Below are positions 44,923 through 64,000 of a stretch of DNA of 64,000 nt, piece after piece (position 1 is the stretch's first letter; every line of letters begins with the position of its first letter). The DNA comes from Pseudomonas sp. A-RE-19. Lineage in GTDB: Bacteria; Pseudomonadota; Gammaproteobacteria; Pseudomonadales; Pseudomonadaceae. Below the pieces are notes generated by a model that was given only the letters and a program-made list of their open reading frames with translations, ran no database searches and was not told the DNA's origin. A program made the position numbers and the translations under genes. The DNA lies in contig NZ_JAHBDQ010000019.1 in assembly GCF_019956555.1 (NCBI RefSeq), positions 1 to 64,000 on the forward strand. The letters are read 5' to 3'.

Positions 44923-45062
44923 CGGCTCAACTCCGGGCATGGGTTGGACATCGGCGTCAAATACTGCACGCCCTCGTTCCCGTATGCTGGTGTAGCTCGA
45001 CTGAGGTGAAGCGGCTTTTTGCTGAGTGTTGGAAGGAGGCTATCGGAGATACAGCGCAGGTA

Positions 45063-47309: not shown

Positions 47310-47311
47310 GA

Positions 47312-47845: not shown

Positions 47846-47857
47846 GGGGAAAACCTC

Positions 47858-49018: not shown

Positions 49019-49082
49019 ATCATTGCTCCTGGGGATGAACCCGATGACTATAGACCGGAAAAAACAGGGGTGAATGTGATCG

Positions 49083-49095
49083 GCACGCTGCCAGG
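49083..49095 (-). promoter_or_regulatory. ops-like element in the EPS operon leader
   Basis: On the minus strand this reads CCTGGCAGCGTGC, close to the RfaH recruitment element (GGCGGTAGCGTGC), matching 9 of the last 11 positions. It lies about 65 nt upstream of the first structural gene and downstream of an RfaH-like gene on the same strand, as expected for an RfaH-controlled operon. The rest of the interval 49019-49265 is AT-rich with no ORF. Confidence 0.45.
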
Positions 49096-49265
49096 TGAAA
49101 TCAAAAATGGCTTCATGAAAGAGGCTGCTAAGTTGATTGATTAACTTGTCCAGGAGTGACGAATTAAAGAGGCATTAATGTCAGGCTTGGAATGCAGTGC
49201 CAGGCTTAATGAGCTCAGGGTTAATCATGTTGCTTGTTGAATGCGCTGCTGCAGATAATGTGTCG

Positions 49266-49793
49266 CTAAACTTTAAGTTGAGGTTGTGATCGTTCAATGT
49301 CAGTTAGCGGGACGCGAACATGCTGCTCTCTATTCAGAAAGTGAAGCAGTATCATGACTCGCTCGTCACCCAACATGCTCAGGAAAATACCTTCGAGTGT
49401 CGACAGTGGTCCTTTGGTTATTTGCAGTGTTTCGCCGGGTTTGAATAATTGGGATTCAGACATTGCTGATAACTTTAAACACCGGGTACGCAGATGCTCG
49501 ATGACATCGTCAGGAACCATCGCCGGGCCATGATTGAAATCGACGATGCGGCTGACACCACGGGTAGAACGCAAAGGCGCCCACTTGTCGTCACGACTCA
49601 GCTGAATGAAAAGGTACCCCGGAAAGAGGGATTCAAGGGTTTTATGGGGTTTGCCATGAATCAGGCGCTGGCTGATGATTTGCGGGCAAAAAATGACATA
49701 GTTTTGTCGCAATAAATTGACTTGTGCCCGTTCGTCCTGACGCGGCTTGCATTGCAAAAGATACCAATTAGAACCTTGGGTACTCGTCAGCAT
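49266..49793 (-). CDS. RfaH/NusG-like transcription antiterminator
   Basis: This 175-residue NusG paralogue has the NGN-domain opening NWYLLQCKPRQDERAQVNL, the SLFPGYLFIQL core and a C-terminal KOW-like region (FKPGETLQITKGPLSTLEGIFL). It lacks the acidic N-terminal extras of NusG and resembles RfaH in length (E. coli 162). RfaH-type factors ride RNA polymerase through long polysaccharide operons after loading at an ops sequence. Located 247 bp upstream of the EPS operon on the same strand, it is the likely operon-specific elongation factor. Confidence 0.88.
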   Translation of the reverse strand: MLTSTQGSNWYLLQCKPRQDERAQVNLLRQNYVIFCPQIISQRLIHGKPHKTLESLFPGYLFIQLSRDDKWAPLRSTRGVSRIVDFNHGPAMVPDDVIEHLRTRCLKLSAMSESQLFKPGETLQITKGPLSTLEGIFLSMLGDERVMILLHFLNREQHVRVPLTDIERSQPQLKV

Positions 49794-50525: not shown

Positions 50526-51581
50526 TTAGAGCTGCACCCGCCGCAGTCGGCCGCTCAACGGAGCGACCCTGTTATCTGGTGTGGGCAGTGGCCGGTCGGT
50601 TAATCCCATGCCTTCGCTCACCAGTACCGCATCCTGCACCAGGCACAGGTTGGAAGGCGTATCCAGACCGCGGGCGAGCACGGCGACCTCGGCGGTTTGC
50701 AGATTGCAACTGAGCAGTCGACCGGTGAAACGGGTAAAGCCGCCATGGAGGGGTTCGCCGTTCCAGTCCGGCGGCAAGGGTTGCTGCAGGCGGTCGCAGA
50801 GTTCCAGGACCAGCACGTTGCCCTTCGGACACAGTGCCAGTCCGGTGGGCAGTTGCAGGCCGCGAATCAGGAGCTCGATCTGCCCGCTGGCGGGCCAGAC
50901 CCGAATCACCTGGCCTGCCTTGTCGGCAAAATTGATGCCCTTGCGCGCAGGGTCGCCCTGCAGCTCTCCGGAGAACAGGCTGATCAGCACGGCGTCGGTC
51001 GCCGGTTCGTACACCAGGGTCACGGGAACGGCTTCCTGGCCTTGATCCAGTTCGGGCAACTGGACCAGCACGCGCTCGTCCTGTCCGCTGATGAACTCCA
51101 CCAGCTGATTGGTATCGGGTTTGACCGCCAGCCAACTGCGGCGAGTCGGGTGGTAACACAGCGCATTCAGATTGCCACGGCTGTGAAACACCGGCTCGGG
51201 CGGGGTGTATTGCAGGTCCAGCAGTTTGGAACCCTCGACATAATCGGTCTGGCTGACCAGGCAGCGCCCGTCACCGCAGGCGATGTCCGAAAGCCCCATG
51301 ATTTCATCGCGCAGCATACGGGCCTGCATGTTCATGGCGCGAAAACCTTGCGCCAGTATTTCGCGGGGCAGATAGGCGCCGGGTCTGTGTGGATCCGGTC
51401 GCAGTCGACTGATACGGCCGCTGAAGGTCTGGTCCGGCCGGCCGGAGCCGGCTTCGGCCAGCAGCAGGCTGCCATCGGCCTGCACACAAAGGCCCCGAGG
51501 GTTCAGCAGGCCTTCAGCGATGATAGTACTCGGGCGCAACGTTTCAGTCGGTTGCGCCGGGATGTGAATGGGAACGGGCAT
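50526..51581 (-). CDS. ScyD/ScyE-like beta-propeller (NHL-type) protein
   Basis: This is a 351-residue protein built of repeated blade-like segments. The opening AEGLLNPRGLCVQADGSLLL-AEAGSG and later IRGLQLPTGLALCPKGNVLV and ARGLDTPSNLCLVQDAVLV each follow the 'GL-x-P-x-G/N-L' pattern of NHL/SMP-30-type propellers and of the ScyD/ScyE family from scytonemin clusters. There is no signal peptide. I choose the ATG at 51581 with GGAGAGAG upstream. It is the last gene of the ebo-linked operon, 31 bp after the 602-residue unknown. Catalytic function is not established. Confidence 0.7.
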   Translation of the reverse strand: MPVPIHIPAQPTETLRPSTIIAEGLLNPRGLCVQADGSLLLAEAGSGRPDQTFSGRISRLRPDPHRPGAYLPREILAQGFRAMNMQARMLRDEIMGLSDIACGDGRCLVSQTDYVEGSKLLDLQYTPPEPVFHSRGNLNALCYHPTRRSWLAVKPDTNQLVEFISGQDERVLVQLPELDQGQEAVPVTLVYEPATDAVLISLFSGELQGDPARKGINFADKAGQVIRVWPASGQIELLIRGLQLPTGLALCPKGNVLVLELCDRLQQPLPPDWNGEPLHGGFTRFTGRLLSCNLQTAEVAVLARGLDTPSNLCLVQDAVLVSEGMGLTDRPLPTPDNRVAPLSGRLRRVQL

Positions 51582-51612
51582 AAGGGCTCTCTCCATGAAT
51601 AAGGGGGCACGA

Positions 51613-53421
51613 CTACTGCGGCGGCTGCCACGGTTCACCGGTGAGATAGGCCCGGAGCAGCGCCCGCTGGCAGGGCGACATCGAGCGCACCACCGGCATG
51701 AACAGGGTGGTGCCTTTGTAGGCGTCCGAGGTTCGGGCGAGGATGGGGTTTTTGGCGCCCATGACCGCGTCGGGTTGATTGAGCGGGATGTAGCGTGACA
51801 TGGCGGGGAAGGCCAGGTAGTGAAAACGCAAGACGTTCGGGTACATCAGCTCCCAGGTGATGGTGGTGCCCGCGGGGATGCCGAAGTCGGTCTGTGCGTA
51901 TTTGCGAAAGCTGGTGAAGTAGCCACCGCTTTTAAAGCCGTTGATCGCGTAGGTCAGGGCGACAAAGCCCGCCTGGGCGGCAGTACCCGGTTTGACGGTG
52001 ACAGGGAAACTGACTGCGAGCTGGCCGGGTTCTACGGTCAGCGAGGCCGGAAACTCGAGGAAATTCCAGTACTGCGGATTTTTGTATACCGCAGGTGGAC
52101 TGGCTTTCAGGTCGATTTCGGTGGCTTTGGGGACCGGGCCGCCCAGACACCTCACCTGCAGGGTGATCGACAGGCCATTGGGGTAGTCCTCCAGATAAAC
52201 GTTGCGCTGATCGGCATACACCCGATAAGTCGATTCGATTGCGTTTAGCGTGGTTTCGGCAACTTCGTCGGGTGCGGTGATGGCCAACTCGTTGGTCCGC
52301 GCCGCTTCCTGTTGGCTAGTACTCAGGGGCAGGTCGACGATGCCACCATACACGTAGTAGTTGAATAACGGACTCGTTGTCGGGTCGAGGGTGGTCAGGG
52401 TGGTTGTGCCTGCAGAGATAGTGACGAGACCGTAATCCGCGTTGGGCCCGATGGGGCTGGTGATGTCGTCTCTGACGGCCCTGAAGGTTTGCTTCGGGAT
52501 GACGTTCACCATGTCGATGCTCAGGATGCCGCTGTCGCCCAGATCGGCATAGCCAGTGCTCTTGGTGCTCTGGTTGACCAGCTGCCGGCCCGGCTGACAG
52601 TTCTTCGGTTCGTCCGCGAAGGCCGGAGCCAGTGTACCGATGACCCGGCCGATGCTCGGGTTGGGGGTGTATCGGCCGGCGGCGTAATCGGCATCCAGTT
52701 GCTCGGTGGTCATCGTGGGGCACATCTCGAACATGACAAAGCGCAGGACAATGCCTGTCGCACCCGGCGCCTGGATGATCGATCGCAGGCCACTGCTGTT
52801 CTCGTTCCAGCTGACGATGCTGCTCAGGGGAAAGGTCAACTGAAACGTGCCGCTGAGGCGGAAAGAACCCGGCGCATCCATCTCCTCTGGCTCCAACACC
52901 CGCATTTTGACATCCAGGCTGCTGCAGACCGTGTTCGCGCGAATCAGCAATTGGATGTCGCTGTTACCGCCAATTTGCAGACCGCCAACGAATATCTGGG
53001 TGGTGTTTGTGGCGGTGGGGTCCAGGTCCACCATCATCGGGCCGGAAACGGGCCCCTGTCCGGTCACCGGGTCCACCGAACCGAGCAGATAGACCGGCTG
53101 GCCCACCATATCGCCGGTGGTGTTGATGCTGCCCGGACTACCCTGCGAACTGATCAAGGCGTTCTGCATGTCGACGACATGCTGCCCGTAGTGATTCCAG
53201 CCGCCAGCGGTGTAGTAGTCGCCGTCGGGCGCGTTGATCATGTTGTTCAACTGGTCGTCGGTGTAAGACTGGGCACTCGGTGCCAGGGTCGAGGTGGTCA
53301 GGTCGAAGAGCGGCCATTTCTCATTGCCGTCGTAAGGGATGGTAGGGGAGTTGTTCGGCAGGCTGACGTCCGTGCGGATGCCGCCCCAGAAATTCAGCCG
53401 TGGTCCATTGAGAATGCTCAT
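51613..53421 (-). CDS. Large unknown protein, paralogue A of the ebo-linked pair
   Basis: This 602-residue protein of no recognised family has no signal peptide or membrane segment and is rich in Thr, Ser, Asn and Pro with many short beta-like stretches. Its ends resemble those of the 796-residue protein at 55740-58130: N-terminal MSILNGPRLNFWG versus MSVLNFPRIYLNG, and C-terminal AMSRYIPLN / VVRSMSPCQRALL versus IMSKFMPLN / ITRDMSQSRRAVL. A TITWELMYP block also has a counterpart. It starts 3 bp after the c-type haem protein gene, so co-translation is likely. The role is unknown; a partner of the haem protein is an inference from the alternating order. Confidence 0.8.
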   Translation of the reverse strand: MSILNGPRLNFWGGIRTDVSLPNNSPTIPYDGNEKWPLFDLTTSTLAPSAQSYTDDQLNNMINAPDGDYYTAGGWNHYGQHVVDMQNALISSQGSPGSINTTGDMVGQPVYLLGSVDPVTGQGPVSGPMMVDLDPTATNTTQIFVGGLQIGGNSDIQLLIRANTVCSSLDVKMRVLEPEEMDAPGSFRLSGTFQLTFPLSSIVSWNENSSGLRSIIQAPGATGIVLRFVMFEMCPTMTTEQLDADYAAGRYTPNPSIGRVIGTLAPAFADEPKNCQPGRQLVNQSTKSTGYADLGDSGILSIDMVNVIPKQTFRAVRDDITSPIGPNADYGLVTISAGTTTLTTLDPTTSPLFNYYVYGGIVDLPLSTSQQEAARTNELAITAPDEVAETTLNAIESTYRVYADQRNVYLEDYPNGLSITLQVRCLGGPVPKATEIDLKASPPAVYKNPQYWNFLEFPASLTVEPGQLAVSFPVTVKPGTAAQAGFVALTYAINGFKSGGYFTSFRKYAQTDFGIPAGTTITWELMYPNVLRFHYLAFPAMSRYIPLNQPDAVMGAKNPILARTSDAYKGTTLFMPVVRSMSPCQRALLRAYLTGEPWQPPQ

Positions 53422-53424
53422 GAT

Positions 53425-54729
53425 CTATTCCTCGTCCTTGGTGGTTTTGCCGACAGGCGCATTGGCGAATTTGAACAGGTAGGAAAAGTCGGCCTTGTAG
53501 GGGCTCTTGACCGGTGTCGCCATGGAGTGGCAGTTCATGCAGCTGCTGTTGGGCTGGATGTAGCTCTCCATGGTCACGTTGGCCGACAGCGCCGGTGTCG
53601 GCTGGCCCAGTGGGTTACTGGGGTTGTCCGGCATCAGCGGGCGCTGGGTGGTGATGAGCTGGTAGTACTTCAACACGCTTTTTTGCAGGCCCGGGTCGGT
53701 GCGGTAATTGGTGTTCACCCCGTTGGTGATCTCGGCAATCGGGGTAAACCGGTTCAGCGGGTTCGGGGTCTGGAACGTGGTGCCGGGTTTGGGCACGCAG
53801 ACCAGATGCGCGCCTTGAGTCTGCCAGTCGCAGGGTGATTGGTTGAGGGAGGCGGCGGGGGCGGCGGGGTTGAAGTAGGAATAGGCCGTGCCGGAGGTCG
53901 GCTGGTCGACCCATTTGCCGTTCACCAGCACCTTGGGCGGAACGTTGTCGATCTGCTCGAAGGTCGACCAGATCCACTGCGGATAGCCATTCACCTTGGT
54001 GATGATGTGCAAGCCCACCAGGCCCAGGTAGGCCTCGGTGACACCGACACGCTGGCCTTGGTCATCGAACTTGGCCACGCGCGCCAGCATCGTCAGGTAG
54101 CGGCTGGCGTTGTCACTGGTCGTGAGGATGCGCCAGCTCGATTTGACCTCGATGACCCCATAGGGAAAGTTGATGTTGTTGGCTCTGGAAACGACATTAG
54201 CGTTATAGAAACTATTGGTGACGATGTAGTTGTAAGAGGTCTCGTTGGCCGAGATGTCGTAGTAGGTCGGGTTGCCGGCCTGGTCGATCAGCCAGCCGCC
54301 GACGGCCTGGTCGACAGCATTCACCTGAGTGCTGTTCTTCAGTGCGGCGATGTTGATGATGCCCAGGCTTTTTGCGGTCTGCGGGGTATTCCACGGGCCA
54401 GGGTTGGCCCCTTGCGGCAGAAAGATTTCCTCCACGGTCTTGTAGGTCTGCCAGACGGTATAGCCGGGATCCCCAGGCTGTTTGTTGCAGTCGGGATCAC
54501 CTCGCTGCCCGTCCTGCGCGGGCCAGTTCAAGGCGATGAACATCTGCCAGCTGTATTGATCGAACTGGTCCTGACTGGCGGTGGCGGCCGGCGCGGTGCT
54601 GGGAGGCTGGCAGCTCAGGCTGGTGGCCTGCGTCGACGGCATGGCCTGTTCCCGGGCCTGCACCAGGGTTAGCCCCGGCAGGCTGGTCAGGCCCAGTAAC
54701 ATCACGGTGAAACGGAGTGTGGTTTTCAT
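53425..54729 (-). CDS. Periplasmic single-haem c-type protein, paralogue A
   Basis: This 434-residue exported protein has the signal peptide TTLRFTVMLLGLTSLPGLTLVQA. A roughly 350-residue domain of unknown fold is followed by one CXXCH haem site, CMNCH at residue 397, near the C-terminus. It shares blocks with the protein at 58141-59280: SWQMFIALNWPA versus WNWFVCLNQPA, VEVKSSWR-type versus WELKSAW, and GLHIITKVNGYPQWIWSTFEQ versus GLHVINKLNPGWVWTTFEN. The arrangement suggests a periplasmic electron-transfer or oxidase subunit. I cannot identify the distal haem ligand. Confidence 0.82.
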   Translation of the reverse strand: MKTTLRFTVMLLGLTSLPGLTLVQAREQAMPSTQATSLSCQPPSTAPAATASQDQFDQYSWQMFIALNWPAQDGQRGDPDCNKQPGDPGYTVWQTYKTVEEIFLPQGANPGPWNTPQTAKSLGIINIAALKNSTQVNAVDQAVGGWLIDQAGNPTYYDISANETSYNYIVTNSFYNANVVSRANNINFPYGVIEVKSSWRILTTSDNASRYLTMLARVAKFDDQGQRVGVTEAYLGLVGLHIITKVNGYPQWIWSTFEQIDNVPPKVLVNGKWVDQPTSGTAYSYFNPAAPAASLNQSPCDWQTQGAHLVCVPKPGTTFQTPNPLNRFTPIAEITNGVNTNYRTDPGLQKSVLKYYQLITTQRPLMPDNPSNPLGQPTPALSANVTMESYIQPNSSCMNCHSMATPVKSPYKADFSYLFKFANAPVGKTTKDEE

Positions 54730-54748
54730 GGCGATCCTTCGTCATTGG

Positions 54749-55672
54749 TCAGGGTTTGCGCTGCATGAGCTTGTTCCACTGCGCCTTGTGCCCGTTGCTC
54801 TGTGAAGCCGGTGGCTCGAACAATTGGCAGGGCGGCGGATTCGCCGGGCACATCGCGGCCACCTGCGCCCAGGTCTTGGCCGGGTCCGGTTTGGCGATGC
54901 GGAAGTTGGTGTAGTTCTGGCTGACGATGGGCGCATTGGCGACGCTGGTGTCACCGGAGAAAAAGAACGACTGGGGATGCCGGTAGGGCGGTTGTCCTGA
55001 CAGTTGTTTGAAAAAGGCGTAGCCGAACAGGATGGGACCTTGCGGCGAGTCGAGGTCCAGGGCGTAGGCCTGCACGCTGCCATCGAGGTTTTTGCTGCGC
55101 TCGGCGCTGTAGGGCAGGTGCTGGATGAAATCTTGCCGCGGCGGATGATTCATTGGCGAAAACATGCAACAGGCCGGCATGTCCTTGGGGCGGTCTTGCG
55201 GATAGGTCAGAAAGTACGCCTTATTGCCCAGGGACACGAAGGAGCAGGTGTAGTTGTTGTTCTTGATCGGGAAGATCGGCAGACAGTATTTCTCGTAGTG
55301 CTCCATCATGGCGCCGAAGCCGTCGCCATCCGGCGGGATATAGGCGGTGTCGTAGTAGCTGGTGCCTCGGGAGACGGTGTAGTCCGCCGGGGTGAGGGTC
55401 GAGGGTGGGTTGCTGTAGGGCGGCGGGTTTTTTTCGTAGTTGTGCATCACCCGGTACATGGTCCAGTCACTGATCCAGTAGGCCGGAAAAAACGGATCGG
55501 AAGGGTCGTTCGGTGCGCGTTTGGCGATGCAGTTGCCGTTCTGGGCATTGCACCCTTCGGTGTTATGCACCCCCATGGTGAAGTAGACGGCGCCACTGTC
55601 CTCCTGGGCAAAAAGGGAGGGGCTGAGCAGCAGGGTCAGCAGCAACAGTCGATTCAAGATGCTGGCTTTCAT
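54749..55672 (-). CDS. Cysteine-rich secreted protein of unknown function
   Basis: This 307-residue exported protein has the signal peptide MKASILNRLLLLTLLLSPSLFA; the start at 55672 is fixed by AGGAG and by the position of the signal peptide. The mature part has about nine cysteines (EGCNAQNGNC, KYCLP, YTCSF, PACCMF, AAMCP, PPCQL), consistent with disulfides in the periplasm, plus several Tyr/Pro-rich stretches. No family is recognised. It lies between the two paralogue sets, 19 bp from the next gene and 67 bp from the previous one. Confidence 0.72.
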   Translation of the reverse strand: MKASILNRLLLLTLLLSPSLFAQEDSGAVYFTMGVHNTEGCNAQNGNCIAKRAPNDPSDPFFPAYWISDWTMYRVMHNYEKNPPPYSNPPSTLTPADYTVSRGTSYYDTAYIPPDGDGFGAMMEHYEKYCLPIFPIKNNNYTCSFVSLGNKAYFLTYPQDRPKDMPACCMFSPMNHPPRQDFIQHLPYSAERSKNLDGSVQAYALDLDSPQGPILFGYAFFKQLSGQPPYRHPQSFFFSGDTSVANAPIVSQNYTNFRIAKPDPAKTWAQVAAMCPANPPPCQLFEPPASQSNGHKAQWNKLMQRKP

Positions 55673-55739
55673 ATGACACTCCTGTGAAGTGCCGGGTGAC
55701 AGGTTCGTCACCCGGTGGTCCTGCTCGAATGTTGCTGTT

Positions 55740-58130
55740 TCAGACTTGCTTGTAGTCGCTCATGCTGAGAGGGACAGGGGGGTAATTGCGTTTCACCAGG
55801 GACTGTGCCCAGAGCTCCAGAACGGCGCGTCGGCTTTGCGACATGTCGCGGGTGATGGGCATGGCGAGTGTGCTTTCCTCCTGATATTCCTTGCTGATCA
55901 ACACAATGAGCTGGTCGATGGCGCCTTCGATTCGCTCCAGGGAATTGAGTGGCATGAATTTGCTCATGATCGGGTACAGGTAATAGAAGGGCTGCAGGAT
56001 GCGTGGGTAGATGAAGCTTTCCCAGATCAGGACCCGGGCCTCGGGTTTGGTGTAGATCTGGTTCCATTCGTTGACGAAGTCCTGCTGCAGTTTCGGCTCC
56101 AGCGGCAGCACACGCAAAGGCGCCATGAAGTCGGTATAGGCGTCCGTGTAGTTGAAACTGAAAGGGATCTCGGGAGGCTGTTCACCCTCCTGCACGAAGA
56201 AGCGCAGGGTCGGGAAGCCAGGGGCCCGGCCTTTAACGGTCAGTCGTGCGATGCCCTTGGCGTCGGTCTGTATCTGCGTCACGCAATAATTCACGGTGCT
56301 GTTCTGGAGATCCTGCAGCTTGCCTTCCATGGGGACGGGATTGTTGAAGCTCAGGCTGGGGGCCAGGGAAACCGAGGCGGGTGTCGAGAGGTATTGTTGA
56401 TAGGTGACGGGGATCGGCACCTCGGAGGGCGCCTCGGCGTGTAATGCCATGAGCCGGCGGCCACTGCCTGTGCTTGCCTGGCTGTGTTCGCTGGGGGCAT
56501 CGATGAATTGCGGCAGATTGGATTTGTTCTTTTTGCGGTTCAGCGGATAGTCGTAGAACAGCGTGAAGTCGGCCTTGTTGCTGAACGCCAGGTAGTAATC
56601 GCTGGTACTCAACATGAAGGCGTTGTCGTACTCCGCCACCCAGAGCACGGTGCCGGCCGGCGCCGGAAGGCCGTCGTATTGCACCATGATCTGCAGTGTT
56701 CTGCTGTCTCCCACATCGATGAAACTGGCGCTTTCCACCACCTCGGCGGTCCACATCTGCTGGGTAGCGGCCTGCGTCGGTGTTGTGCCCTGCAGTTGCA
56801 GTTCCAGCGATCCGGTTTGCAGCTTTTTCCTGGCGCCGGGGTTGAGCGTCAAATCCAGGATGCCGGAGCGTTTGTCGAAGGCTGCCTGTCGATACTGTTC
56901 GAAGCCGAAACTGGTCAGGGGGCTGAATTGGCCTGCGTCGTTTATCCCCAGTACGTAATTGCCTGCCTGGAATTTCTCCGCCACCGGAATGTTAGCGTTG
57001 CTGTCGAGCGGATAGAACGGGAAGGCGGTCGAGAGATCCAGCGACAGGGTATCGCTGTCAGGCTGGACCTGGGCCGAGATCACTCCCAGCTGTATTTCTA
57101 CGCCGGGGGGAAGGGGCGTATCGCCAGGTGAGGTCTTGTAAGGGCTGATGGCGGAGGCGGGGACCAGGCGCCGTCCCGCCGGCGCGGTCGGGAACTCATC
57201 CTCAAACCACAGGCCCAGGGTGCCGGCAGTGCGACTGTAGGCCGGGTTGAAGAAAATATCGGCAACGTTATCCAGGCCTTTTTGATACATCGCCTGCACG
57301 TTCGCCTGTATCTGCGGGTCTGTGGAATGGGTGTTGATGGGGGGGTAATCGTTGAAAATGCCGTTTCTGTCGTAGCAGGTCAGGTAGGTGGAGAACCTGA
57401 ACATCAGCCCCTTGGCGTGTTGTTGGTCCATCTGTTCCTGGAGGTCTTTGAGCAGTTGCGAGTCGCCAATTACCCACTGCAGGTTCTCTTTGGGAAAGCA
57501 GGTCTGCCACGTCGTGGTGACATAGATCAGGCCACCCAACGCCCCCCAGTTGAAGTTCAGAAAGCGATCGAGCATCCGGTGCTGACGCTTGAGCGTCACG
57601 CCGCACTGATCGTCACCCAGCACCAGCTTGTCGAAGTACAGCGCGGTGAAGGTGTTCTGCCAGGGGCTGACGTCGACGAATCGGGCGGGGGTGGGATTCG
57701 TGCTGCCAAGGGGGTTGCCGAACAGTTGGTAAGCCTTGTCGATCAGCGGATCCTGGTCGACGTAACCACCGCCAGGAAGCTCGCCGCCAATGATCACGGA
57801 CCGGGTCTGGTCATAGCTGACGGTGCCGCAGGCGTTGTCGCCGAACAGGTCCCATTCGGCGGGAATCATCGGGTAGCTTTGCGGGTTGGCATTGCCCGGC
57901 ACTTGCAGAACATAAGCAGGTACATCGCTCATCGCCAGGGGGGCGATGGTCCAGGGCATCAAGGTGCTGGCGGCATTCTCGGGATCGATGCCGTATTCAG
58001 CGAGAAACCGCCAGTTCATCTGCATCTTGACCGCGTCGTAGAGCGGAAGTACGTCGTTGTTATTGGCCGTTGGCGGGTTCCAGAACATATGGCCGTTGAG
58101 GTAGATGCGGGGGAAATTCAATACGCTCAT
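55740..58130 (-). CDS. Large unknown protein, paralogue B of the ebo-linked pair
   Basis: This 796-residue protein has no signal peptide and no recognised family. I start it at 58130, with AAGGAG 6 nt upstream; an earlier frame start at 58178 would sit in the preceding gene. It shares its N-terminal MS-LN-PR motif and C-terminal PIMSKFMPLN and MPITRDMSQSRRAVLELW blocks with the 602-residue protein but is 190 residues longer in the middle. Many Asp/Pro/Gly turns suggest beta-rich modules (VQYDGLPAPAGTVLWVAEY). It begins 10 bp after the haem protein stop. Confidence 0.8.
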   Translation of the reverse strand: MSVLNFPRIYLNGHMFWNPPTANNNDVLPLYDAVKMQMNWRFLAEYGIDPENAASTLMPWTIAPLAMSDVPAYVLQVPGNANPQSYPMIPAEWDLFGDNACGTVSYDQTRSVIIGGELPGGGYVDQDPLIDKAYQLFGNPLGSTNPTPARFVDVSPWQNTFTALYFDKLVLGDDQCGVTLKRQHRMLDRFLNFNWGALGGLIYVTTTWQTCFPKENLQWVIGDSQLLKDLQEQMDQQHAKGLMFRFSTYLTCYDRNGIFNDYPPINTHSTDPQIQANVQAMYQKGLDNVADIFFNPAYSRTAGTLGLWFEDEFPTAPAGRRLVPASAISPYKTSPGDTPLPPGVEIQLGVISAQVQPDSDTLSLDLSTAFPFYPLDSNANIPVAEKFQAGNYVLGINDAGQFSPLTSFGFEQYRQAAFDKRSGILDLTLNPGARKKLQTGSLELQLQGTTPTQAATQQMWTAEVVESASFIDVGDSRTLQIMVQYDGLPAPAGTVLWVAEYDNAFMLSTSDYYLAFSNKADFTLFYDYPLNRKKNKSNLPQFIDAPSEHSQASTGSGRRLMALHAEAPSEVPIPVTYQQYLSTPASVSLAPSLSFNNPVPMEGKLQDLQNSTVNYCVTQIQTDAKGIARLTVKGRAPGFPTLRFFVQEGEQPPEIPFSFNYTDAYTDFMAPLRVLPLEPKLQQDFVNEWNQIYTKPEARVLIWESFIYPRILQPFYYLYPIMSKFMPLNSLERIEGAIDQLIVLISKEYQEESTLAMPITRDMSQSRRAVLELWAQSLVKRNYPPVPLSMSDYKQV

Positions 58131-58140
58131 GTCATGCTCC

Positions 58141-59280
58141 TTAGCGTTGCCACTGGGCGCGTTTGAGCGACCAGACAAAGTCCAGTTTGTTGTAACCGAC
58201 GAAGGCCGATTCCGGCAGGAGGGCGGTGGGGTAGACGATGCCGCCCTGTTCTTTCATGGCGAAGTTGAAATAGCCCTTTTTCGCCGAATATGCGGCGGTG
58301 TCGTGGCAGGCAAAGCACGACGACTGGCTCTGAAAAGCTGACTCCAGCTGAGAGTTGGCCAGCAAGGTCGGGTTGGTCTTGGACTGGACTGCGATCAGTT
58401 CGTACTGCGACAACCCGGGATATTGAGCCTGGAATTGGCTATTGACGGGCTTGGCAGCGGCTATCGGCCCGGTGCTGTTGGTCATCGGAGTGGGTGGGAT
58501 GGCGTTGGTGACGGTGTACTTGCTGTTGTTAATGTTTTCGAAAGTGGTCCAGACCCAGCCGGGATTCAGTTTGTTGATGACATGCAAGCCGCTCAGCGCT
58601 GCATAGCCGACCTGGTATTTACCGTCTTGCAGGTAATAGGCCTGGGCGATGTAGTAACCGTCGTTTTCCAGGGTCTGTTTGTAAGTCGCGTCGGAGCCGA
58701 TCCACAGCCAGGCGGATTTCAACTCCCAGGCGGTGGAGGGGAACTCCAGGTTACTGGTCAAGGCCGCCTGGCCGTTCATGTTGTAGACCTGGCGTTGCAC
58801 GATGTAATCGAAAGTGCCTTCGCCCATCAGCAGCTGAAAGCGCACGGGTTTGCCTGTTTCTGGCGCCGGCACCGCACCGCCCATTTCCAGAATCATGCCA
58901 TCGACCTGTTGCGTGGCGTTGAGGTTATGGAAGATTCGGGACAGGTCCATTCCCTGCGCCTTGGCTTGAGTCAGCACCGCGTCCGGGGGCGGCACGGGTG
59001 TGCCATAAGGGGCGGGTTTGGCGCCATTGATCAGGTAGACCTGGTCGGAGGGTTTCATGGACTCCCACTCGAGGTTGGGGCTTCCCGCCGCGGCGGGCTG
59101 GTTCAGGCAGACGAACCAGTTCCAGGCCAGGGTCTCGGGACTCTGGGCAAACTCGGTTCGGGTCTTGTCGACGTTTCCTCCAAACTGCAGGAAGTTGCTG
59201 CAGTCGAAGGTACTCGGGGTCTGAGCCTGAGCCAAACCGGCCAGTGCACTCAGAACTGTTATAGAAATGGCGCGCCGCAT
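58141..59280 (-). CDS. Periplasmic single-haem c-type protein, paralogue B
   Basis: This 379-residue exported protein has the signal peptide MRRAISITVLSALAGLAQAQ and one CXXCH site, CFACH at residue 322, followed by 54 residues. The N-terminal 310 residues share blocks with the 434-residue haem protein (see GLHVINKLNPGWVWTTFE and the 'V/I-F/Y-L-x-x-GA-x-P' segment). GGAG precedes the ATG, which lies 22 bp inside the end of eboF. This overlap physically ties the haem genes to the ebo operon. Likely periplasmic redox partner; the substrate is unknown. Confidence 0.85.
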   Translation of the reverse strand: MRRAISITVLSALAGLAQAQTPSTFDCSNFLQFGGNVDKTRTEFAQSPETLAWNWFVCLNQPAAAGSPNLEWESMKPSDQVYLINGAKPAPYGTPVPPPDAVLTQAKAQGMDLSRIFHNLNATQQVDGMILEMGGAVPAPETGKPVRFQLLMGEGTFDYIVQRQVYNMNGQAALTSNLEFPSTAWELKSAWLWIGSDATYKQTLENDGYYIAQAYYLQDGKYQVGYAALSGLHVINKLNPGWVWTTFENINNSKYTVTNAIPPTPMTNSTGPIAAAKPVNSQFQAQYPGLSQYELIAVQSKTNPTLLANSQLESAFQSQSSCFACHDTAAYSAKKGYFNFAMKEQGGIVYPTALLPESAFVGYNKLDFVWSLKRAQWQR

Positions 59281-60704
59281 GGAAGCTCCTTGGCATTGGC
59301 CAGGTCGGTGTGTGGGTGCCCCAGGAAATGCTGTAGGAGCAGTTGTTTCACCGCCGTGGCCGCAAGGTGCTGCGGCAACGGCAGATCACAATTGGTGATG
59401 AGCAGCGGGCCGGTCTTCTCGCTGCCGGGCAGGCGGCCATGGCTGCCGCGGACCAGACGGGTGTCCAGCGGAATCAGGTCCATGTAGTAGCGAAAGCCAA
59501 GCTTTTTCTGCAGCAGGCGGCGCGCCACTTTCAATTTGGGGAAGCGAATGGCCGGGTCGATGAACAGCTCCAGCGGGTCGTAGCCGGGCTTGCGATGGAT
59601 GTCCACGGTACGGGCAAAGTCGGGTGCCTTGCGATCGTCAAACCAGTAGTAGTAATCGAACCAGTAGCCCGGCGCCGCCACGGTCACCAGCTCGCCGCTG
59701 CGGGGATGGTCCAGCTGGCAGGCCCGTTGTTCGGCTTTATCCAAAACCTGCTCGATGCCGGGCTGGCGCTGCAACAGCGCTTTGACGCGAGGTATGTCTT
59801 GCGCCTGCTTCACGTAGACATGCGCGATCTGATGATCGACCACGGCAAAGGCTGCGCTGGCGCCAGGGTCAAGCAATTCCCAGGTGAGCGATTGGCGCAC
59901 CTGCAACAAGCCTTCCGAGCGCAACAGCCGGTTGATGGAAACAGATTGCTGCACGGCTTCGATCCCATACTCGGATAACAGCATTACCGCCGCGCCTTGC
60001 TCCTGGGCAAAGGTCAGCAGGCGACCCACTTCACTGTCGATGGCCCGCACCTCGTCGGCAATCGACGGATGATCGGGGCCCAGACGCTGCAGGCTGTAGT
60101 CGAGATGCGGCAGGTAAACCAATTGCAGGTCGGGTCGGTCGAGCTGGAATTCGGCGATGGCGCAGTCGACGATCCAGCGGCTCGACGCGATGCCGGCTGC
60201 CGGGCCCCAGAAGCTTGGAAAGGGGAACTCGCCGATCTGCTGCTCGATACGTTCATGCAACGAGGCCGGGGACGAATACAGACCGAACATTTTGCGGCCA
60301 TCGGCCGGGTAGTGCGGGCGTGGGGTGATGGCGGCATCCACGTCCGCATACATGTTGTACCACCAGAACAGCTGGCTGCAGCGAAACCCGGGGAGCTCAC
60401 GCTTGAGCTGCTGCCAGACTTTTTCACCCTGGATCAGTGCGTTGGGTTGCAGCCAGAAACGTACTTCGGCCTGGTCGCGAAAATACCAGCCATTGCCCAC
60501 GATGCCGTGCTCGGACGGTGGCAGACCGGTGAGGATCGAGGCTTGCACCGTAGACGTGACGGCCGGAAACACCGGTTGCAGGCTGGCCATTTTTGCCGTT
60601 TTCAACAGGGCATTGATGTGAGGCGTCGCCGCCCCCAACAGCGCCGGTGTCAGCGCAACCACGTTGATCAGCAGCAGCGGTTGACGCGAGTGATCAGAGG
60701 GCAT
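59259..60704 (-). CDS. eboF: EboF-like alkaline phosphatase superfamily protein
   Basis: This 481-residue member of the nucleotide pyrophosphatase/phosphodiesterase branch of the alkaline phosphatase superfamily has LLLINVVALTPALLGAATPH at the N-terminus, a nucleophile segment FPAVTSTVQASILTG, SEHGIVGNGWYFRD, and metal-site blocks YLPHLDYSLQR and MLLSEYGIEAV. I start it at 60704, where it overlaps eboE by 11 bp; the open frame upstream has no coding character. The order after EboE matches ebo clusters. There is no clear signal peptide, and the phosphoester substrate is unknown. Confidence 0.82.
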   Translation of the reverse strand: MPSDHSRQPLLLINVVALTPALLGAATPHINALLKTAKMASLQPVFPAVTSTVQASILTGLPPSEHGIVGNGWYFRDQAEVRFWLQPNALIQGEKVWQQLKRELPGFRCSQLFWWYNMYADVDAAITPRPHYPADGRKMFGLYSSPASLHERIEQQIGEFPFPSFWGPAAGIASSRWIVDCAIAEFQLDRPDLQLVYLPHLDYSLQRLGPDHPSIADEVRAIDSEVGRLLTFAQEQGAAVMLLSEYGIEAVQQSVSINRLLRSEGLLQVRQSLTWELLDPGASAAFAVVDHQIAHVYVKQAQDIPRVKALLQRQPGIEQVLDKAEQRACQLDHPRSGELVTVAAPGYWFDYYYWFDDRKAPDFARTVDIHRKPGYDPLELFIDPAIRFPKLKVARRLLQKKLGFRYYMDLIPLDTRLVRGSHGRLPGSEKTGPLLITNCDLPLPQHLAATAVKQLLLQHFLGHPHTDLANAKELPCGAPFL

Positions 60705-61926
60705 CGGCGTACGCCTCCCGCGTCTGGGATTGCAGCAATTGTCGCTGGCGCAATTGGTCTTCGACCCAGCGCAGTTCGGCGGCGATCCCCTGGAGTTGGG
60801 CGTGCTCGGTCGTGGGCCGCAGCTGGGCGGGCAGGACGCCCCAGCTGTAGGTTTCCACTTCCAGCACGGGACGAAAATCCGGATGGTCTGCCAGGAAGTC
60901 GAAGGTCTGCGACAGGGCGATCTGACTGCCACTGAGCTCGGGCAGCAGCAAGTGTTCGCTGAACAGCGGAATGTGGAAATGAATCCTCAGCTCGGGGTAT
61001 TGCCCCGGAATATTTGCGCAATCGTCGAGCGCGGCGGGAAGGTCGGCCCAGGCCAATAACCGGTCCTGCGCATCACGGGCTTTCACTTGATGCAGGTAGG
61101 TGGTTTCGGCGAAGTCGCTCAAGGTCTTGAGGACGTGTTCGCGCCGATCATTGTCTTGAGAGGGCAGGCGACAGATCAGGGCGTTGGACAGCTGAATCTT
61201 GCCCACGGGCACCCGGGCCTGACGCAGCTTTTCCAGTGACCGATAACAATGTTCGAAGACCACGGCCTGGTGGCAGACATCAAAACACAGCGCCAAATAG
61301 TCATGGTTCGGGTCCGTGGCTTGGCAGCGGTGGAAAAAGGCGATCGCCTGGTCGGTGTTTTCCAGCACGCAGTCGGGCTCCATCTCCAGGCAGAACACGA
61401 TCTTCTTGCCCGTCTCCAAATGCAGCCTGGCCAGTGAGGCGGTGAGCTGGCGCAGTTGATACTCGGCACGCCGCTGTAAGGCCGGGCTCCAACTGGCGGC
61501 ATAACCCAGCGGCACAGTGGATATCACGCCCTGTTTACAGTCCGGCGGCAAGGCAGCCGCGAGAATCCGCGCCAGATTCAGGCTGTACGCCAGCCGTTTC
61601 GGATCAGCCCAACTGGGCAAATAGACCTCGGCTTTCACGGCGCCCTGATGAAACTGGCCGTAGGGAAAGCCGTTAAGCGAGGTCAGGCGTAGCCCGCAAC
61701 GTTGCAGCAGGCTCAGGAACTCCGTGCGAGCCGACGCCTGTTGTAATTCGGCCGCGGCGAGAGCGCTGATCCACAGGCCACTGTCCTGCTCGGTCAGCCC
61801 GCGCAGGGTTCGCACGCCCTGAAAATGCTGTTCGATGGATGACCGTAGTCCCGCCAGGTCACGGGTCGGGTGCACATTGCTGCAATAACCGACCTGCGCG
61901 GCAGCCCAACCCGTGCCGGCACTCAT
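60694..61926 (-). CDS. eboE: EboE, metabolite traffic protein (TIM-barrel, sugar-isomerase-like)
   Basis: This 410-residue protein resembles xylose isomerase/endonuclease IV-like TIM barrels. The N-terminal VGYCSNVHPTRDLAGL is a hallmark of EboE; later blocks are LTSLNGFPYGQFH, KAEVYLPSW, CLEMEPDCVLENT and LCFDVCHQAVVFEH, with acidic and His residues expected at a metal site. The ATG overlaps the eboB stop as ATGA. The family is implicated in moving or processing a precursor for export in ebo pathways; the exact reaction is unknown. Confidence 0.88.
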   Translation of the reverse strand: MSAGTGWAAAQVGYCSNVHPTRDLAGLRSSIEQHFQGVRTLRGLTEQDSGLWISALAAAELQQASARTEFLSLLQRCGLRLTSLNGFPYGQFHQGAVKAEVYLPSWADPKRLAYSLNLARILAAALPPDCKQGVISTVPLGYAASWSPALQRRAEYQLRQLTASLARLHLETGKKIVFCLEMEPDCVLENTDQAIAFFHRCQATDPNHDYLALCFDVCHQAVVFEHCYRSLEKLRQARVPVGKIQLSNALICRLPSQDNDRREHVLKTLSDFAETTYLHQVKARDAQDRLLAWADLPAALDDCANIPGQYPELRIHFHIPLFSEHLLLPELSGSQIALSQTFDFLADHPDFRPVLEVETYSWGVLPAQLRPTTEHAQLQGIAAELRWVEDQLRQRQLLQSQTREAYADAL

Positions 61927-62807
61927 TTGATCACCGGTTCCTGGCCGCGCAGAGCGGAGTTGTCCTGCCACTGCCGACGCTGGTCGATGGGCAGCGGGGT
62001 GCTGACGAGGGCTTTGTCCAGTTGGCCGCTTTGGGCAAAAAAGTCCACCGGGTTGTGGAATAGCACCTGTTCGACCTGGGCTTCGGTGAAGCCGGCAGCC
62101 AGCATTGCCTGGCCCGTTTTGGGCACCTTGAGCGGATCGCTGATCCCCCAGTCGGCGGCGCTGTTGACCACCATTTTTTCGGTGCCGTATTCCTGCAACA
62201 GGGCGACCATGCGCTGTTCCGACATCTTGGTGTTGGGGTAGATGGAATGGCCGCGCCAACAGTCGCTGTCCAGCACCAGGGGCAGGGTCAGTTCGTTGAG
62301 GTGGTCGATGATCACCAGGTGCTCGGCAATCCCCACTTCACGAATCACCGCCAGGGTGCGTTTGGTGCCACCGATCTTGTCGCGGTGCGGGGTGTGTACC
62401 AGTACCGGCAAATTGAATTGCTTGGCCAGTTCCAGCTGAGCGGCGAGAAAGCGATCCTCCTCCGGGGTGATGTCGTCGTAGCCGATTTCGCCGACCGCCA
62501 CGACGCCGTCTTTCACCAGATAGCGCGGCAGAATCTCCAGCACTTCATTGGCCACCGACAGGTCATTGGCCTCCTTGGGGTTGAGGCCGATGGTGCAGAA
62601 GTGATGGATGCCGAACATGCTGGCGCGAAAGCGCTCCCAGCCCAACAGGGTATCGAAGTAATCGATGAAACTGCCGACACTGGTCCTGGCCTGGCCCTGC
62701 CAGAAGGCCGGTTCGATAACCCCGGTGATGCCGGCAGCGGCCATGTTCTGGTAGTCATCGGTGGTGCGGCTGACCATATGAATATGCGGGTCGAAGTACT
62801 TGAGCAT
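61923..62807 (-). CDS. eboB: EboB, TatD-family metal-dependent hydrolase
   Basis: This 294-residue amidohydrolase-like protein has the metal ligands FDPHIHM (residues 5-11), AVGEIGYDD (Glu, about 105), VLVHTPHRDK (His, about 137) and VIIDHLNE (His, about 169). The opening YFDPHIHMVSRTTDDYQNMAAAG recalls the EboB branch rather than DNA-repair TatD. It starts 41 bp after eboA and is followed by eboE with a 4-bp overlap. Substrate unknown. Confidence 0.87.
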   Translation of the reverse strand: MLKYFDPHIHMVSRTTDDYQNMAAAGITGVIEPAFWQGQARTSVGSFIDYFDTLLGWERFRASMFGIHHFCTIGLNPKEANDLSVANEVLEILPRYLVKDGVVAVGEIGYDDITPEEDRFLAAQLELAKQFNLPVLVHTPHRDKIGGTKRTLAVIREVGIAEHLVIIDHLNELTLPLVLDSDCWRGHSIYPNTKMSEQRMVALLQEYGTEKMVVNSAADWGISDPLKVPKTGQAMLAAGFTEAQVEQVLFHNPVDFFAQSGQLDKALVSTPLPIDQRRQWQDNSALRGQEPVIK

Positions 62808-62848
62808 GGTGAATCCTCGTCAAGGGGAGGGAACCGTTGAGCATCGGT

Positions 62849-63616
62849 TCAGAGAGGTGCGGTCAGGTGCTCACGCCATTGCGGCGGCAAGCGGTGCTGC
62901 TGACTCAGGCCGACCAGACGCTGGTGTTGCGCCGGGCTGAGCAGGTTGAAGTCAATCACCCGGGACAGCCCGGCGGACACCGTTCGTTCGGCAGCGAGCT
63001 GTTCGTCCAGCAGGTCGAGGGCCAGTTGGTTGAGGGTGACGCTTTGTCGTTGCGTCAGGCCAAGCAGGCGTCGTACGTCGAGCCCCATGCCCAGTGCCTT
63101 CAGCACCAGTTGATGGAAGGCCCGTTCACTGTAGTGACGCGATGGGTAGAGGGTGTCCAGGGCGAGGGCGGCAAACACCTGGCTGTTACTGGTACGCCCG
63201 GCCTGCAACGCCAACTCCACGCAGAGCCCATCGCTATCGAGCCAGTCGAGGGCCTTCAGGGTGGCGATTTTTTCCTGATCGTCGCCCCACAGAAACAACT
63301 GGCGCAGTAAGGGCAGTTGTCCGGTGAGCGGTTGTTGCTCCAGGACCTGAGCCAGCAACAACGCCCGCGCCAGTTGGACGTTGCTCCAGCCGCAATTGTC
63401 GGGCAGCGCATGCTCCTTGAGGCTGCGCTTGCACTGGCTGCTCAAGAGCGCGGCAGTGTTGGCGTCCGGGCGTTGGTCAAGCCGCTCCTGTGCCTGACGC
63501 CACCACTGCAACTCGACATCATCGAGCTGTTGGGTGAGCGCCTGGCGTTGGTCGGCGAGGCAGTCGTGACGCATTTCGAGGGCTGCTGATGGCGACGCGG
63601 TGACGTCCATGTTCAT
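62849..63616 (-). CDS. eboA: EboA-domain protein
   Basis: This is a 255-residue all-helical, cytoplasmic-looking protein. The block WSNVQLARALLLAQVL, then ATLKALDWLDSDG, VFAALALDTLYPSRHYSERAF and HQLVLKALGMGLDV are the pattern of EboA-domain proteins, with the conserved Leu/Arg helices. The ATG at 63616 overlaps the eboC stop as ATGA. A longer open frame to 63985 is a shadow of eboC. No enzymatic activity is known. Confidence 0.82.
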   Translation of the reverse strand: MNMDVTASPSAALEMRHDCLADQRQALTQQLDDVELQWWRQAQERLDQRPDANTAALLSSQCKRSLKEHALPDNCGWSNVQLARALLLAQVLEQQPLTGQLPLLRQLFLWGDDQEKIATLKALDWLDSDGLCVELALQAGRTSNSQVFAALALDTLYPSRHYSERAFHQLVLKALGMGLDVRRLLGLTQRQSVTLNQLALDLLDEQLAAERTVSAGLSRVIDFNLLSPAQHQRLVGLSQQHRLPPQWREHLTAPL

Positions 63617-64000
63617 GTCGGTTTGATCCAGCGCTGGAAGTGTGGAAGCAGGAAAAACACCAGAACACATAACAGGCTGCCCAGCGGCTGGTTGGCCACC
63701 GCCAGCACCAGGGCATCGAACAGCGGCAGGGCCGCCAGGCCGGCGCCGATAAAGGCGCGGACCTGGCGTTGCCGTGGGTTGGCCAGGTGGCGCCAGTAGT
63801 GCCAGCCCAGCCAGCCAAGCCAGAGCAGCAACACTGGCCAAAACCAGACATTGTCGGCATAGATCGCCAGGGCCAACGGGCTCAGCATCAGGATCAGGGG
63901 GAGGCGACTGAGCAATTGATTGCGGTGTTCCTGGCGGGCCAGGTAGGTCAGGCCGCTGATGTAGACGCCCAGCAAAATGGCGCAAAGCCAGATCGGTTCC
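63613..64000 (-). CDS. eboC: EboC, UbiA-like prenyltransferase family protein, 3' part
   Basis: The C-terminal 128 codons of a polytopic membrane protein run off the right edge; the frame is open through position 64000. Sequence seen: EPIWLCAILLGVYISGLTYL, then LPLILMLSPLALAIYADNVWFWPVLLLWL, AFIGAGLAALPLFDALVLAVANQPL and LLCVLVFFLLPHF, i.e. at least four hydrophobic segments. GLTYLAR-QEH and the Asp before A-L-V match the end of UbiA-type EboC proteins. As an integral-membrane member it may link the cytoplasmic ebo enzymes to export. Confidence 0.8.
   Translation of the reverse strand, partial: EPIWLCAILLGVYISGLTYLARQEHRNQLLSRLPLILMLSPLALAIYADNVWFWPVLLLWLGWLGWHYWRHLANPRQRQVRAFIGAGLAALPLFDALVLAVANQPLGSLLCVLVFFLLPHFQRWIKPT

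What the first reader, a model, noticed from the sequence alone, without database searches (positions are those of the whole stretch)
50526..64000. ebo/edb operon fused to a six-gene haem/unknown module
Seen: eboC-A-B-E-F are followed without a break by a c-type haem protein (eboF overlaps it by 22 bp), a 796-aa unknown, a Cys-rich secreted protein, a second haem protein, a 602-aa unknown and a ScyD/ScyE-like propeller. All 11 genes are on one strand with spacings from -22 to +67 bp. Known: in cyanobacteria the ebo genes take part in getting a scytonemin monomer to the periplasm, and a homologous 'EDB' cluster in P. fluorescens NZI7 is, as I recall, needed to repel nematodes. Inference: the downstream genes may finish the exported compound by haem-based oxidation in the periplasm, an arrangement I do not know to be described.
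Basis: partly seen in the sequence, partly recalled or inferred. Interest (0 to 1): 0.88.

Follow-up and report, generated by a model that had tools for sequence, protein, structure and literature searches.

The report
EDB operon with split VioB-like enzymes
A Pseudomonas operon resembling the known worm-repelling EDB cluster carries, beside its metabolite-export genes, two proteins related to one half of the enzyme that joins tryptophan-derived units in violacein, each paired with a haem protein; similar half-enzymes sit beside such export genes in three bacterial phyla.

Summary
In detail: one strand, 11 genes, gaps of -22 to +67 bp. eboC completes and a VTT-eboD fusion lies just past the window end. 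The arrangement matches the EDB cluster of P. fluorescens NZI7 as far as held papers describe it, so ebo plus extra exported proteins is not new. What appears new is the identity of the two large "unknowns": both are homologues of the N-terminal half of VioB (chromopyrrolic-acid synthase type), each preceded by a CXXCH haem-type protein. In 248 Pseudomonadaceae genomes the VioB-like genes occur in exactly the 11 that carry eboE, within about 5 kb of it. Elsewhere, VioB-N-like genes followed by a separate ferritin-like (VioB C-half) gene adjoin ebo genes in Mycetohabitans, Gloeothece (cyanobacterium; eboB and eboD only) and Aureibacter (Bacteroidota); the Cys-rich protein recurs near them in four non-Pseudomonas lineages. 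The 11 EDB-bearing genomes lack the ferritin-like half. Best reading: a tryptophan-derived repellent whose VioB-like step uses haem partners, with ebo/VTT export. Coupling chemistry is inferred. The VioB-like proteins lack export signals, so a fully periplasmic finish is only partly supported. AlphaFold models were too poor to use.

The parts
63613..64000 (-). eboC (UbiA-like), C-terminal part; the gene starts at 64503 and is preceded by the VTT-eboD fusion (64500-66386, outside the window)
62849..63616 (-). eboA
   Evidence: NCBIfam EboA_domain 134.8 bits, cut-off 50; start read
61923..62807 (-). eboB (TatD-like hydrolase)
   Evidence: Pfam TatD_DNase 46.5 bits, cut-off 27
60694..61926 (-). 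eboE
   Evidence: NCBIfam TIM_EboE 403.6 bits, cut-off 250
59259..60704 (-). eboF (phosphodiesterase/pyrophosphatase)
   Evidence: Pfam Phosphodiest 207.4 bits, cut-off 23
58141..59280 (-). hem1: Sec-like N-terminus, one C-terminal CXXCH; groups with the Gloeothece haem-type protein
55740..58130 (-). vb1 (796 aa): VioB N-half-like, no signal-like N-terminus
   Evidence: TIGR04492 in 14 of 14 members, best E 3.3e-11, far below the equivalog cut-off
54749..55672 (-). cysS (307 aa): Cys-rich, Sec-like N-terminus, 54-58% identical over the matched part to proteins in Mycetohabitans and Gloeothece
53425..54729 (-). hem2 (434 aa): Sec-like N-terminus, one C-terminal CXXCH, distant relative of hem1
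51613..53421 (-). vb2 (602 aa): VioB N-half-like, distant relative of vb1, no signal-like N-terminus
   Evidence: TIGR04492 in 8 of 11 members; hhalign to vb1 98.3%, E 1.2e-14
50526..51581 (-). prop: beta-propeller, weakly like ScyE family/NHL, no clear signal peptide
   Evidence: NF033206 58.3 bits, cut-off 80

Best explanation
This is an EDB-type operon for a tryptophan-derived, cell-associated anti-grazing compound. SHOWN here: ebo genes A-F (EboD fused to a VTT/DedA-type membrane domain) are followed by two units, hem1-vb1 and cysS-hem2-vb2, and a propeller. vb1 and vb2 are homologues of the N-terminal half of VioB/chromopyrrolic-acid synthase; no PF12902 ferritin-like half was found in the genome. 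hem1, hem2 and CysS have Sec-like N-termini, vb1 and vb2 do not. INFERRED: vb1 and vb2 act on an indole-pyruvate-imine-type intermediate in the cytoplasm (a VioB-like oxidation or coupling), the ebo proteins and VTT domain move the product across the inner membrane, perhaps on a lipid carrier, and hem1, hem2 and CysS oxidise or finish it in the periplasm. In related ebo loci a VioB-N-like protein is paired with a separate ferritin-like protein; in Pseudomonas a c-type haem protein stands in that place.
For: VioB profile hits: vb1 14 of 14, vb2 8 of 11; Gloeothece vb1-like E 2.1e-16. A 1016-aa VioB-like protein (G641) aligns with vb1 and vb2 in its N half and carries the ferritin-like half. Of 8 plasmid records covering at least 80% of that protein, 8 have it as two adjacent genes, 'hypothetical' and 'ferritin-like'; ebo genes adjoin in 5 of the 8. 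The hem-vb1 pair is shared with Gloeothece, both trees agreeing (0.958 and 0.947). PF12902 in 0 of 11 EDB genomes. Co-occurrence 11/11. Literature: EDB expressed in E. coli gives indole compounds, and a review concludes that the cluster turns external tryptophan into repellents (PMC9655573 passage); [quoted passage not shown] VioB dimerises indole-pyruvate imine and uses haem b (PMC9705886 passage).
Against: Full VioB score not approached (27.3 and 17.5 against 1250 bits); 3 of 11 vb2 members miss even E 0.01; a whole-genome search with the VioB profile did not report the window's own vb1 (2 of 5 first-look candidates scored). No amino-acid oxidase family was matched among the operon's proteins. 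vb proteins and their adjacent haem proteins appear to sit in different compartments, which weakens direct partnership. The compounds named in the review passage are indoles and isoindoles, not dimers. Haem binding was not tested. Structure predictions failed (pLDDT 47.1 and 41.8). 11 of 15 non-Pseudomonas ebo loci scanned lack a VioB-N-like gene, and G395 has the CysS/VioB-N/ferritin set without EboE.
Confidence: 0.5

Rival explanations
1. Known EDB cluster making simple indoles: the six genes are accessory (handling, protection or export of indole-3-aldehyde-type products); the VioB resemblance is inherited but no VioB-like oxidation or coupling takes place.
For: Products named in the review are indole-3-aldehyde, an indolyl-oxoacetamide and isoindoles (PMC9655573 passage). 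VioB scores are far below the equivalog cut-off. No amino-acid oxidase family matched in the operon.
Against: Conserved pairing of VioB-N-like genes with a haem-type or ferritin-like partner over several lineages and their repeated linkage to ebo.
Confidence: 0.25
2. One reading: the compound is exported by ebo and finished wholly in the periplasm by a complex of haem protein plus VioB-like protein, the latter exported without its own signal peptide.
For: hem1, hem2, cysS have Sec-like N-termini; hem lies directly upstream of vb with 10-12 bp (hem1-vb1, 13 loci) and 3 bp (hem2-vb2, 10 loci) gaps, and 68 bp in Gloeothece; final oxidative dimerisation by ScyE is placed in the periplasm in scytonemin (PMC6282210).
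Against: vb1 and vb2 N-termini are not hydrophobic in any of the 13 and 10 loci measured.
Confidence: 0.15
3. hem1 and hem2 are generic electron acceptors or peroxide-handling c-type proteins; they have no dedicated role with the VioB-like proteins.
For: Relatives of the haem protein sit beside unrelated oxidoreductases in 4 of 10 hand-picked plasmid loci: GMC/sorbitol dehydrogenase (L042), molybdenum hydroxylase (L033), tyrosinase (L032), LodA-type plus ferritin-like (L041); and they occur in 16 Pseudomonadaceae genomes without eboE.
Against: hem2 orthologue-level scores (over 700 bits) occur only in the 11 ebo genomes of 248, and hem1 and vb1 group with the Gloeothece pair in parallel.
Confidence: 0.1

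Closest known systems
EDB cluster of Pseudomonas fluorescens NZI7
   Same: Pseudomonas ebo cluster joined to further ORFs, some with signal peptides; its product repels C. elegans (PMC6282210, PMC5736907, PMC4406715 passages)
   Different: Not compared gene for gene: the two primary papers are not held and I did not look for the NZI7 genome
ebo cluster of scytonemin-producing cyanobacteria
   Same: ebo genes; export of an indole-containing monomer before final oxidation (PMC6282210 passages)
   Different: scytonemin loci use ScyE; here two haem/VioB-like units, CysS and a VTT-EboD fusion, and a propeller without a clear signal peptide
VioB / RebD / StaD chromopyrrolic acid synthases
   Same: vb1 and vb2 match the N-terminal half of the VioB profile
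   Different: no ferritin-like half, separate CXXCH protein, no VioA/RebO-type oxidase matched in the operon
UptA/DedA (VTT) undecaprenyl-phosphate transporters
   Same: VTT domain fused to EboD (Pfam over cut-off); stand-alone VTT genes next to or near VioB-N-like genes in two other genomes, G395 and G755
   Different: UptA equivalog score 16.9 against 250; flipping activity untested

Membership tests
ebo cluster | EboE and EboA above NCBIfam cut-offs; TatD, phosphodiesterase, UbiA and DHQ-synthase-like members in one operon | tested here: met
   EboE 403.6/250, EboA domain 134.8/50 (the longer EboA_family model is below its cut-off, 75.2/320); Pfam TatD, Phosphodiest, UbiA, DHQ_synthase; the EboC equivalog itself is below cut-off, 85.5/250
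EDB cluster | ebo plus further ORFs with signal peptides in Pseudomonas | tested here: met
   description from PMC6282210 passage
EDB cluster | repels C. elegans; GacS control | not testable with these tools
   reported for NZI7 (PMC4406715 passage)
VioB / chromopyrrolic acid synthase | full-length equivalog score (TIGR04492, 1250 bits) | tested here: not met
   27.3 and 17.5 bits
VioB / chromopyrrolic acid synthase | homology to the N-terminal half | tested here: met
   14 of 14 vb1, 8 of 11 vb2 at E<=0.01; shared N- and C-terminal positions in 14 sequences, 6 of them from Pseudomonadaceae
VioB / chromopyrrolic acid synthase | ferritin-like PF12902 half | tested here: not met
   absent from vb1/vb2 and from 11 of 11 EDB genomes
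VioB / chromopyrrolic acid synthase | dimerises indole-pyruvate imine; haem b | not testable with these tools
   reported for VioB (PMC9705886 passage)
c-type haem protein | CXXCH and export signal | tested here: met
   one CXXCH in 15 of 15 aligned family members; hydrophobic N-termini by simple hydropathy; no Pfam cytochrome family matched; haem binding itself untested
ScyE family | NF033206 cut-off of 80 bits | tested here: not met
   58.3 bits
ScyE family | periplasmic signal peptide | tested here: inconclusive
   first-25-residue hydropathy -0.03 to 1.54 in 12 propellers, below hem and cysS, but eboF reaches 1.97 by the same measure
VTT/DedA | Pfam VTT_dom over cut-off | tested here: met
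   44.0 against 33.9 bits in the eboD fusion

The most novel reading that the evidence does not exclude
ebo clusters in at least three phyla carry a split, uncharacterised VioB-type oxidative coupling enzyme (VioB-N-like protein plus a separately encoded ferritin-like or c-type haem partner), defining a family of exported, predator-deterring coupled aromatic metabolites. In Pseudomonas the ferritin-like half has been replaced by haem proteins, moving part of the oxidation outside the inner membrane, and a VTT domain recycles the lipid carrier.
Probability: 0.3. Interest if true: 0.82.

Novelty: new variant of a known kind. Interest (0 to 1): 0.62.

Why it matters
The ebo genes are widespread, but what they export outside scytonemin makers is little known. 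Linkage to a split VioB-type enzyme in Pseudomonadota, Cyanobacteriota and Bacteroidota points to a chemical class (tryptophan-imine-derived products) and gives testable gene pairs. It also offers a mechanism for the worm-repelling EDB trait and a natural dissection of VioB, whose structure was described as missing in a 2021 review (PMC9705886 passage).

Tried and rejected
AlphaFold for vb1 and hem1 gave pLDDT 47.1 and 41.8, so no fold search was run. Sequence search of solved structures found nothing at E 1 for vb1, hem1, hem2 or cysS (vb2 not searched); the fused G641 protein hit only 3hl1, a ferritin-like protein.

A recent tandem duplication of hem-vb was considered and rejected: hem1 groups with Gloeothece hem and a Rhizobium relative (0.958, 0.952), hem2 elsewhere, though deep nodes of that tree are weak. 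A split of the VioB-N tree into haem-type and ferritin-partnered sides has support 1.000 and 1.000/100 after adding two sequences and trimming, but the position of G755 is unstable (0.809, then 0.114/60) and its contig holds a ferritin-like fragment, so the split is not a perfect rule.

An RsmA-type hairpin in the leader before eboD was suspected because a GGA lies near -32 in 11 of 12 leaders (L019 lacks it); four leaders folded no better than shuffles (z -0.06 to -0.49), so it is not claimed.

Megablast of the 13,475-base stretch against plasmids found one record, a 3% ebo match. The VioB family search in 274 class genomes found 4 genomes with weak matches, none over the cut-off, and missed the window's own vb1. 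A naive enrichment P of 5e-15 for eboE and the split pair sharing a plasmid record is given little weight: records are related and large, and it takes 47 eboE records without checking that all five counted records are among them. Signal peptides were judged by simple hydropathy only; eboF scores 1.76-1.97 by that measure, overlapping hem1 and hem2, so it separates vb1 and vb2 (at most 0.77) but not every protein.
Full report
OBSERVATION. The eleven genes are present on one strand with the stated order and spacing. The window cuts eboC; the fetched continuation shows eboC starting at 64503 and, with a 4-bp overlap, a 628-aa eboD whose N-terminus is a VTT domain (Pfam 44.0 bits, cut-off 33.9). 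The operon is therefore eboD-C-A-B-E-F-hem1-vb1-cysS-hem2-vb2-prop.

IDENTITY OF THE UNKNOWNS. vb1 and vb2 match no Pfam family but match the N-terminal half of NCBIfam VioB: vb1 in 14 of 14 members (best E 3.3e-11), vb2 in 8 of 11 at E 0.01 (best 5.9e-7). The scores are far below the equivalog cut-off, so they are not VioB. They are related to each other (hhalign 98.3%, E 1.2e-14), and hem1 to hem2 (99.6%, E 8.4e-25). A 1016-aa protein from another gammaproteobacterium (G641) holds both halves: its N part aligns with vb1 (E 1e-11) and vb2 (E 4e-7), it matches VioB (E 7e-15), and its C part is ferritin-like. Fourteen VioB-N-like sequences, 6 of them from Pseudomonadaceae, share N-terminal (M, L, R, G, NN in 14 of 14) and C-terminal (P-x-M, M, R, R in 14 of 14) positions.

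CONSERVATION IN PSEUDOMONADACEAE. One pattern-based scan with vb1 gave 14 loci; all 14 are syntenic with ebo. L010 is cut by its contig end and entered only the vb1 and hem1 alignments; L017 has broken frames and was left out of alignments; L016 and L019 lack cysS-hem2-vb2 and also the VTT part of eboD. That joint absence, in two possibly related species, suggests VTT, cysS, hem2 and vb2 form a sub-unit. In 248 family genomes eboE occurs in 11; vb1, with a second match at vb2, occurs in the same 11, within about 5 kb of eboE, and in no other. hem2 at orthologue level (over 700 bits) is in the same 11; weaker relatives bring the total to 27. In 299 phylum genomes eboE is in 3 and vb1 in 2; the third eboE genome (G427) has eboA-B-D-E-F-C alone.

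OUTSIDE PSEUDOMONAS. cysS was found in 4 plasmid records and in 3 of 299 phylum genomes, of which one, G395, is not Pseudomonas. Near each: Gloeothece verrucosa PCC 7822 (58%): hem-vb1-like pair, divergent eboB (56%) and eboD (48%), a second VioB-N-like gene, a PF12902 ferritin-like gene, cysS; no EboE on that plasmid. Mycetohabitans endofungorum B3 and HKI 0403 (54%): VioB-N-like, ferritin-like, eboD, cysS, eboE-C-A-B-F (for HKI 0403 the VioB-N-like gene by annotation, position and only). Azospirillum B510 (44%): VioB-N-like, ferritin-like, cysS, with ebo on the same circular plasmid over 300 kb away. G395: VTT, cysS, VioB-N-like, ferritin-like, with no EboE in that genome. M. endofungorum HKI 0402 (L056) keeps VioB-N-like, ferritin-like and ebo but only a shortened cysS remnant. 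A search with the fused G641 protein found 169 plasmid records, most of those listed matching the ferritin half only; 8 cover at least 80% of it, all 8 as two adjacent genes. Of these 8, ebo genes adjoin in 5 (three Mycetohabitans; Aureibacter tunicatorum with eboA-B-C-D-E-F; Gloeothece with eboB and eboD only), ebo is on the same plasmid in 1 (B510 pAB510b), and none is near in 2 (B510 pAB510e, A. oryzae). G755 has a VioB-N-like gene, a VTT gene and a ferritin-like fragment on one 3.9-kb contig and an ebo set (D fragment, E, C, A, F, B) on another, so linkage there cannot be told. G641 shows no EboE, but is 85% complete. Against: of 15 non-Pseudomonas ebo loci scanned with profiles, 11 have no VioB-N-like, ferritin-like, hem or cysS gene; of the 4 that do, L029, L052 and L069 were reached by searching for those genes, so this is not a rate.

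PARTNERS. Ferritin-like PF12902 is absent from all 11 EDB genomes searched. In the VioB-N tree vb1, vb2 and Gloeothece vb1-like (haem-partnered) fall with G755 on one side of a long branch and the ferritin-partnered ones on the other (1.000; 1.000/100 after trimming and adding two). Gloeothece vb1-like and hem group with Pseudomonas vb1 (0.947) and hem1 (0.958) in parallel. Ten relatives of the haem protein on plasmids were inspected by hand-picking from the hits: 4 neighbour oxidoreductases, 2 lie in TOMM-type clusters, 2 show none and 2 are unannotated. A redox-partner role is an inference.

COMPARTMENTS. By simple hydropathy of the first 25 residues hem1 (1.92-2.45, 13 loci), hem2 (1.76-2.61, 10) and cysS (1.93-2.93, 11) look exported; vb1 (0.38-0.77, 13) and vb2 (0.21-0.50, 10) do not; prop (-0.03 to 1.54, 12) probably does not. 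eboF reaches 1.97, so the measure is crude. Hence the proposal of a cytoplasmic VioB-like step and a periplasmic finish, both inferred; the tight hem-vb pairing across compartments is unexplained.

LITERATURE. Klicki 2018 (PMC6282210; passages) shows that ebo mutants retain scytonemin monomer in the cytoplasm, discusses lipid carriers, and says that EDB holds a full ebo cluster with other signal-peptide ORFs. A review (PMC9655573; passages) reports that EDB expressed in E. coli gives isoindoles, an indolyl-oxoacetamide and indole-3-aldehyde, the last two moderately repellent. PMC4406715 (passage) reports GacS control and PMC5736907 (passages) a poorly diffusible or cell-associated repellent. 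PMC9705886 (passages) gives VioB chemistry, haem b and the lack of a structure. PMC10784701, PMC10851217, PMC9235831 and PMC5133447 were seen as passages. Burlinson 2013 and Zhou 2022 were not held, so they may already name the VioB relation. Searches of the held open-access library that combined ebo or EDB terms with VioB, ferritin-like or chromopyrrolic listed no paper holding both ebo and VioB terms.

VERDICT. A known cluster type (EDB/ebo) with a new reading of its unexplained genes and a linkage seen in three phyla: new variant of a known kind.

Noticed in passing
43531-49793, minus strand: Directly downstream on the same strand lie a NusG/RfaH-like gene and polysaccharide export/assembly-like genes (named by eye, not family-searched); Klicki 2018 mentions capsule-export genes just upstream of EDB in NZI7.
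   Followed up: no
L005 4500-6389 (window 64500-66389): eboD is fused to a VTT domain; a Salipiger plasmid (L064 6130-8031) has the same kind of fusion in an ebo cluster without VioB-like genes.
   Followed up: partly
L016, L019: In-frame loss of the VTT part of eboD coincides with absence of cysS-hem2-vb2.
   Followed up: partly
L005, about 6390-6560: A TTGCAAA block 158-170 bases before eboD, followed by a TAnnnT-like hexamer, occurs in 10 of 12 leaders (not L008, L014), a possible operon promoter; a GGA near -32 is in 11 of 12 but the leader hairpin is not significant.
   Followed up: partly
L030, L031: Relatives of the haem protein sit in Gloeothece clusters annotated with TOMM leader-binding proteins (and SagB in L030).
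   Followed up: no
L052 1-1592: A LodA/GoxA-type oxidase and a tryptophan-halogenase-like flavoprotein lie a few kb upstream of the Mycetohabitans VioB-N/ferritin/ebo operon; possible amino-acid oxidase source.
   Followed up: no
G000:C14:48301-49557: A further hem2-like protein (E 6.5e-54) elsewhere in the window's genome, away from ebo.
   Followed up: no
55740-58130 against L006, L016, L019: vb1 is 87-89% identical to three loci but 63-76% to the other ten, while hem1 is 92% identical to L007 whose vb1 is 76%: the gene looks mosaic.
   Followed up: no
L073 (G755:C383): The genome whose small contig holds VioB-N-like, VTT and ferritin-like genes also has an ebo set on another contig.
   Followed up: partly
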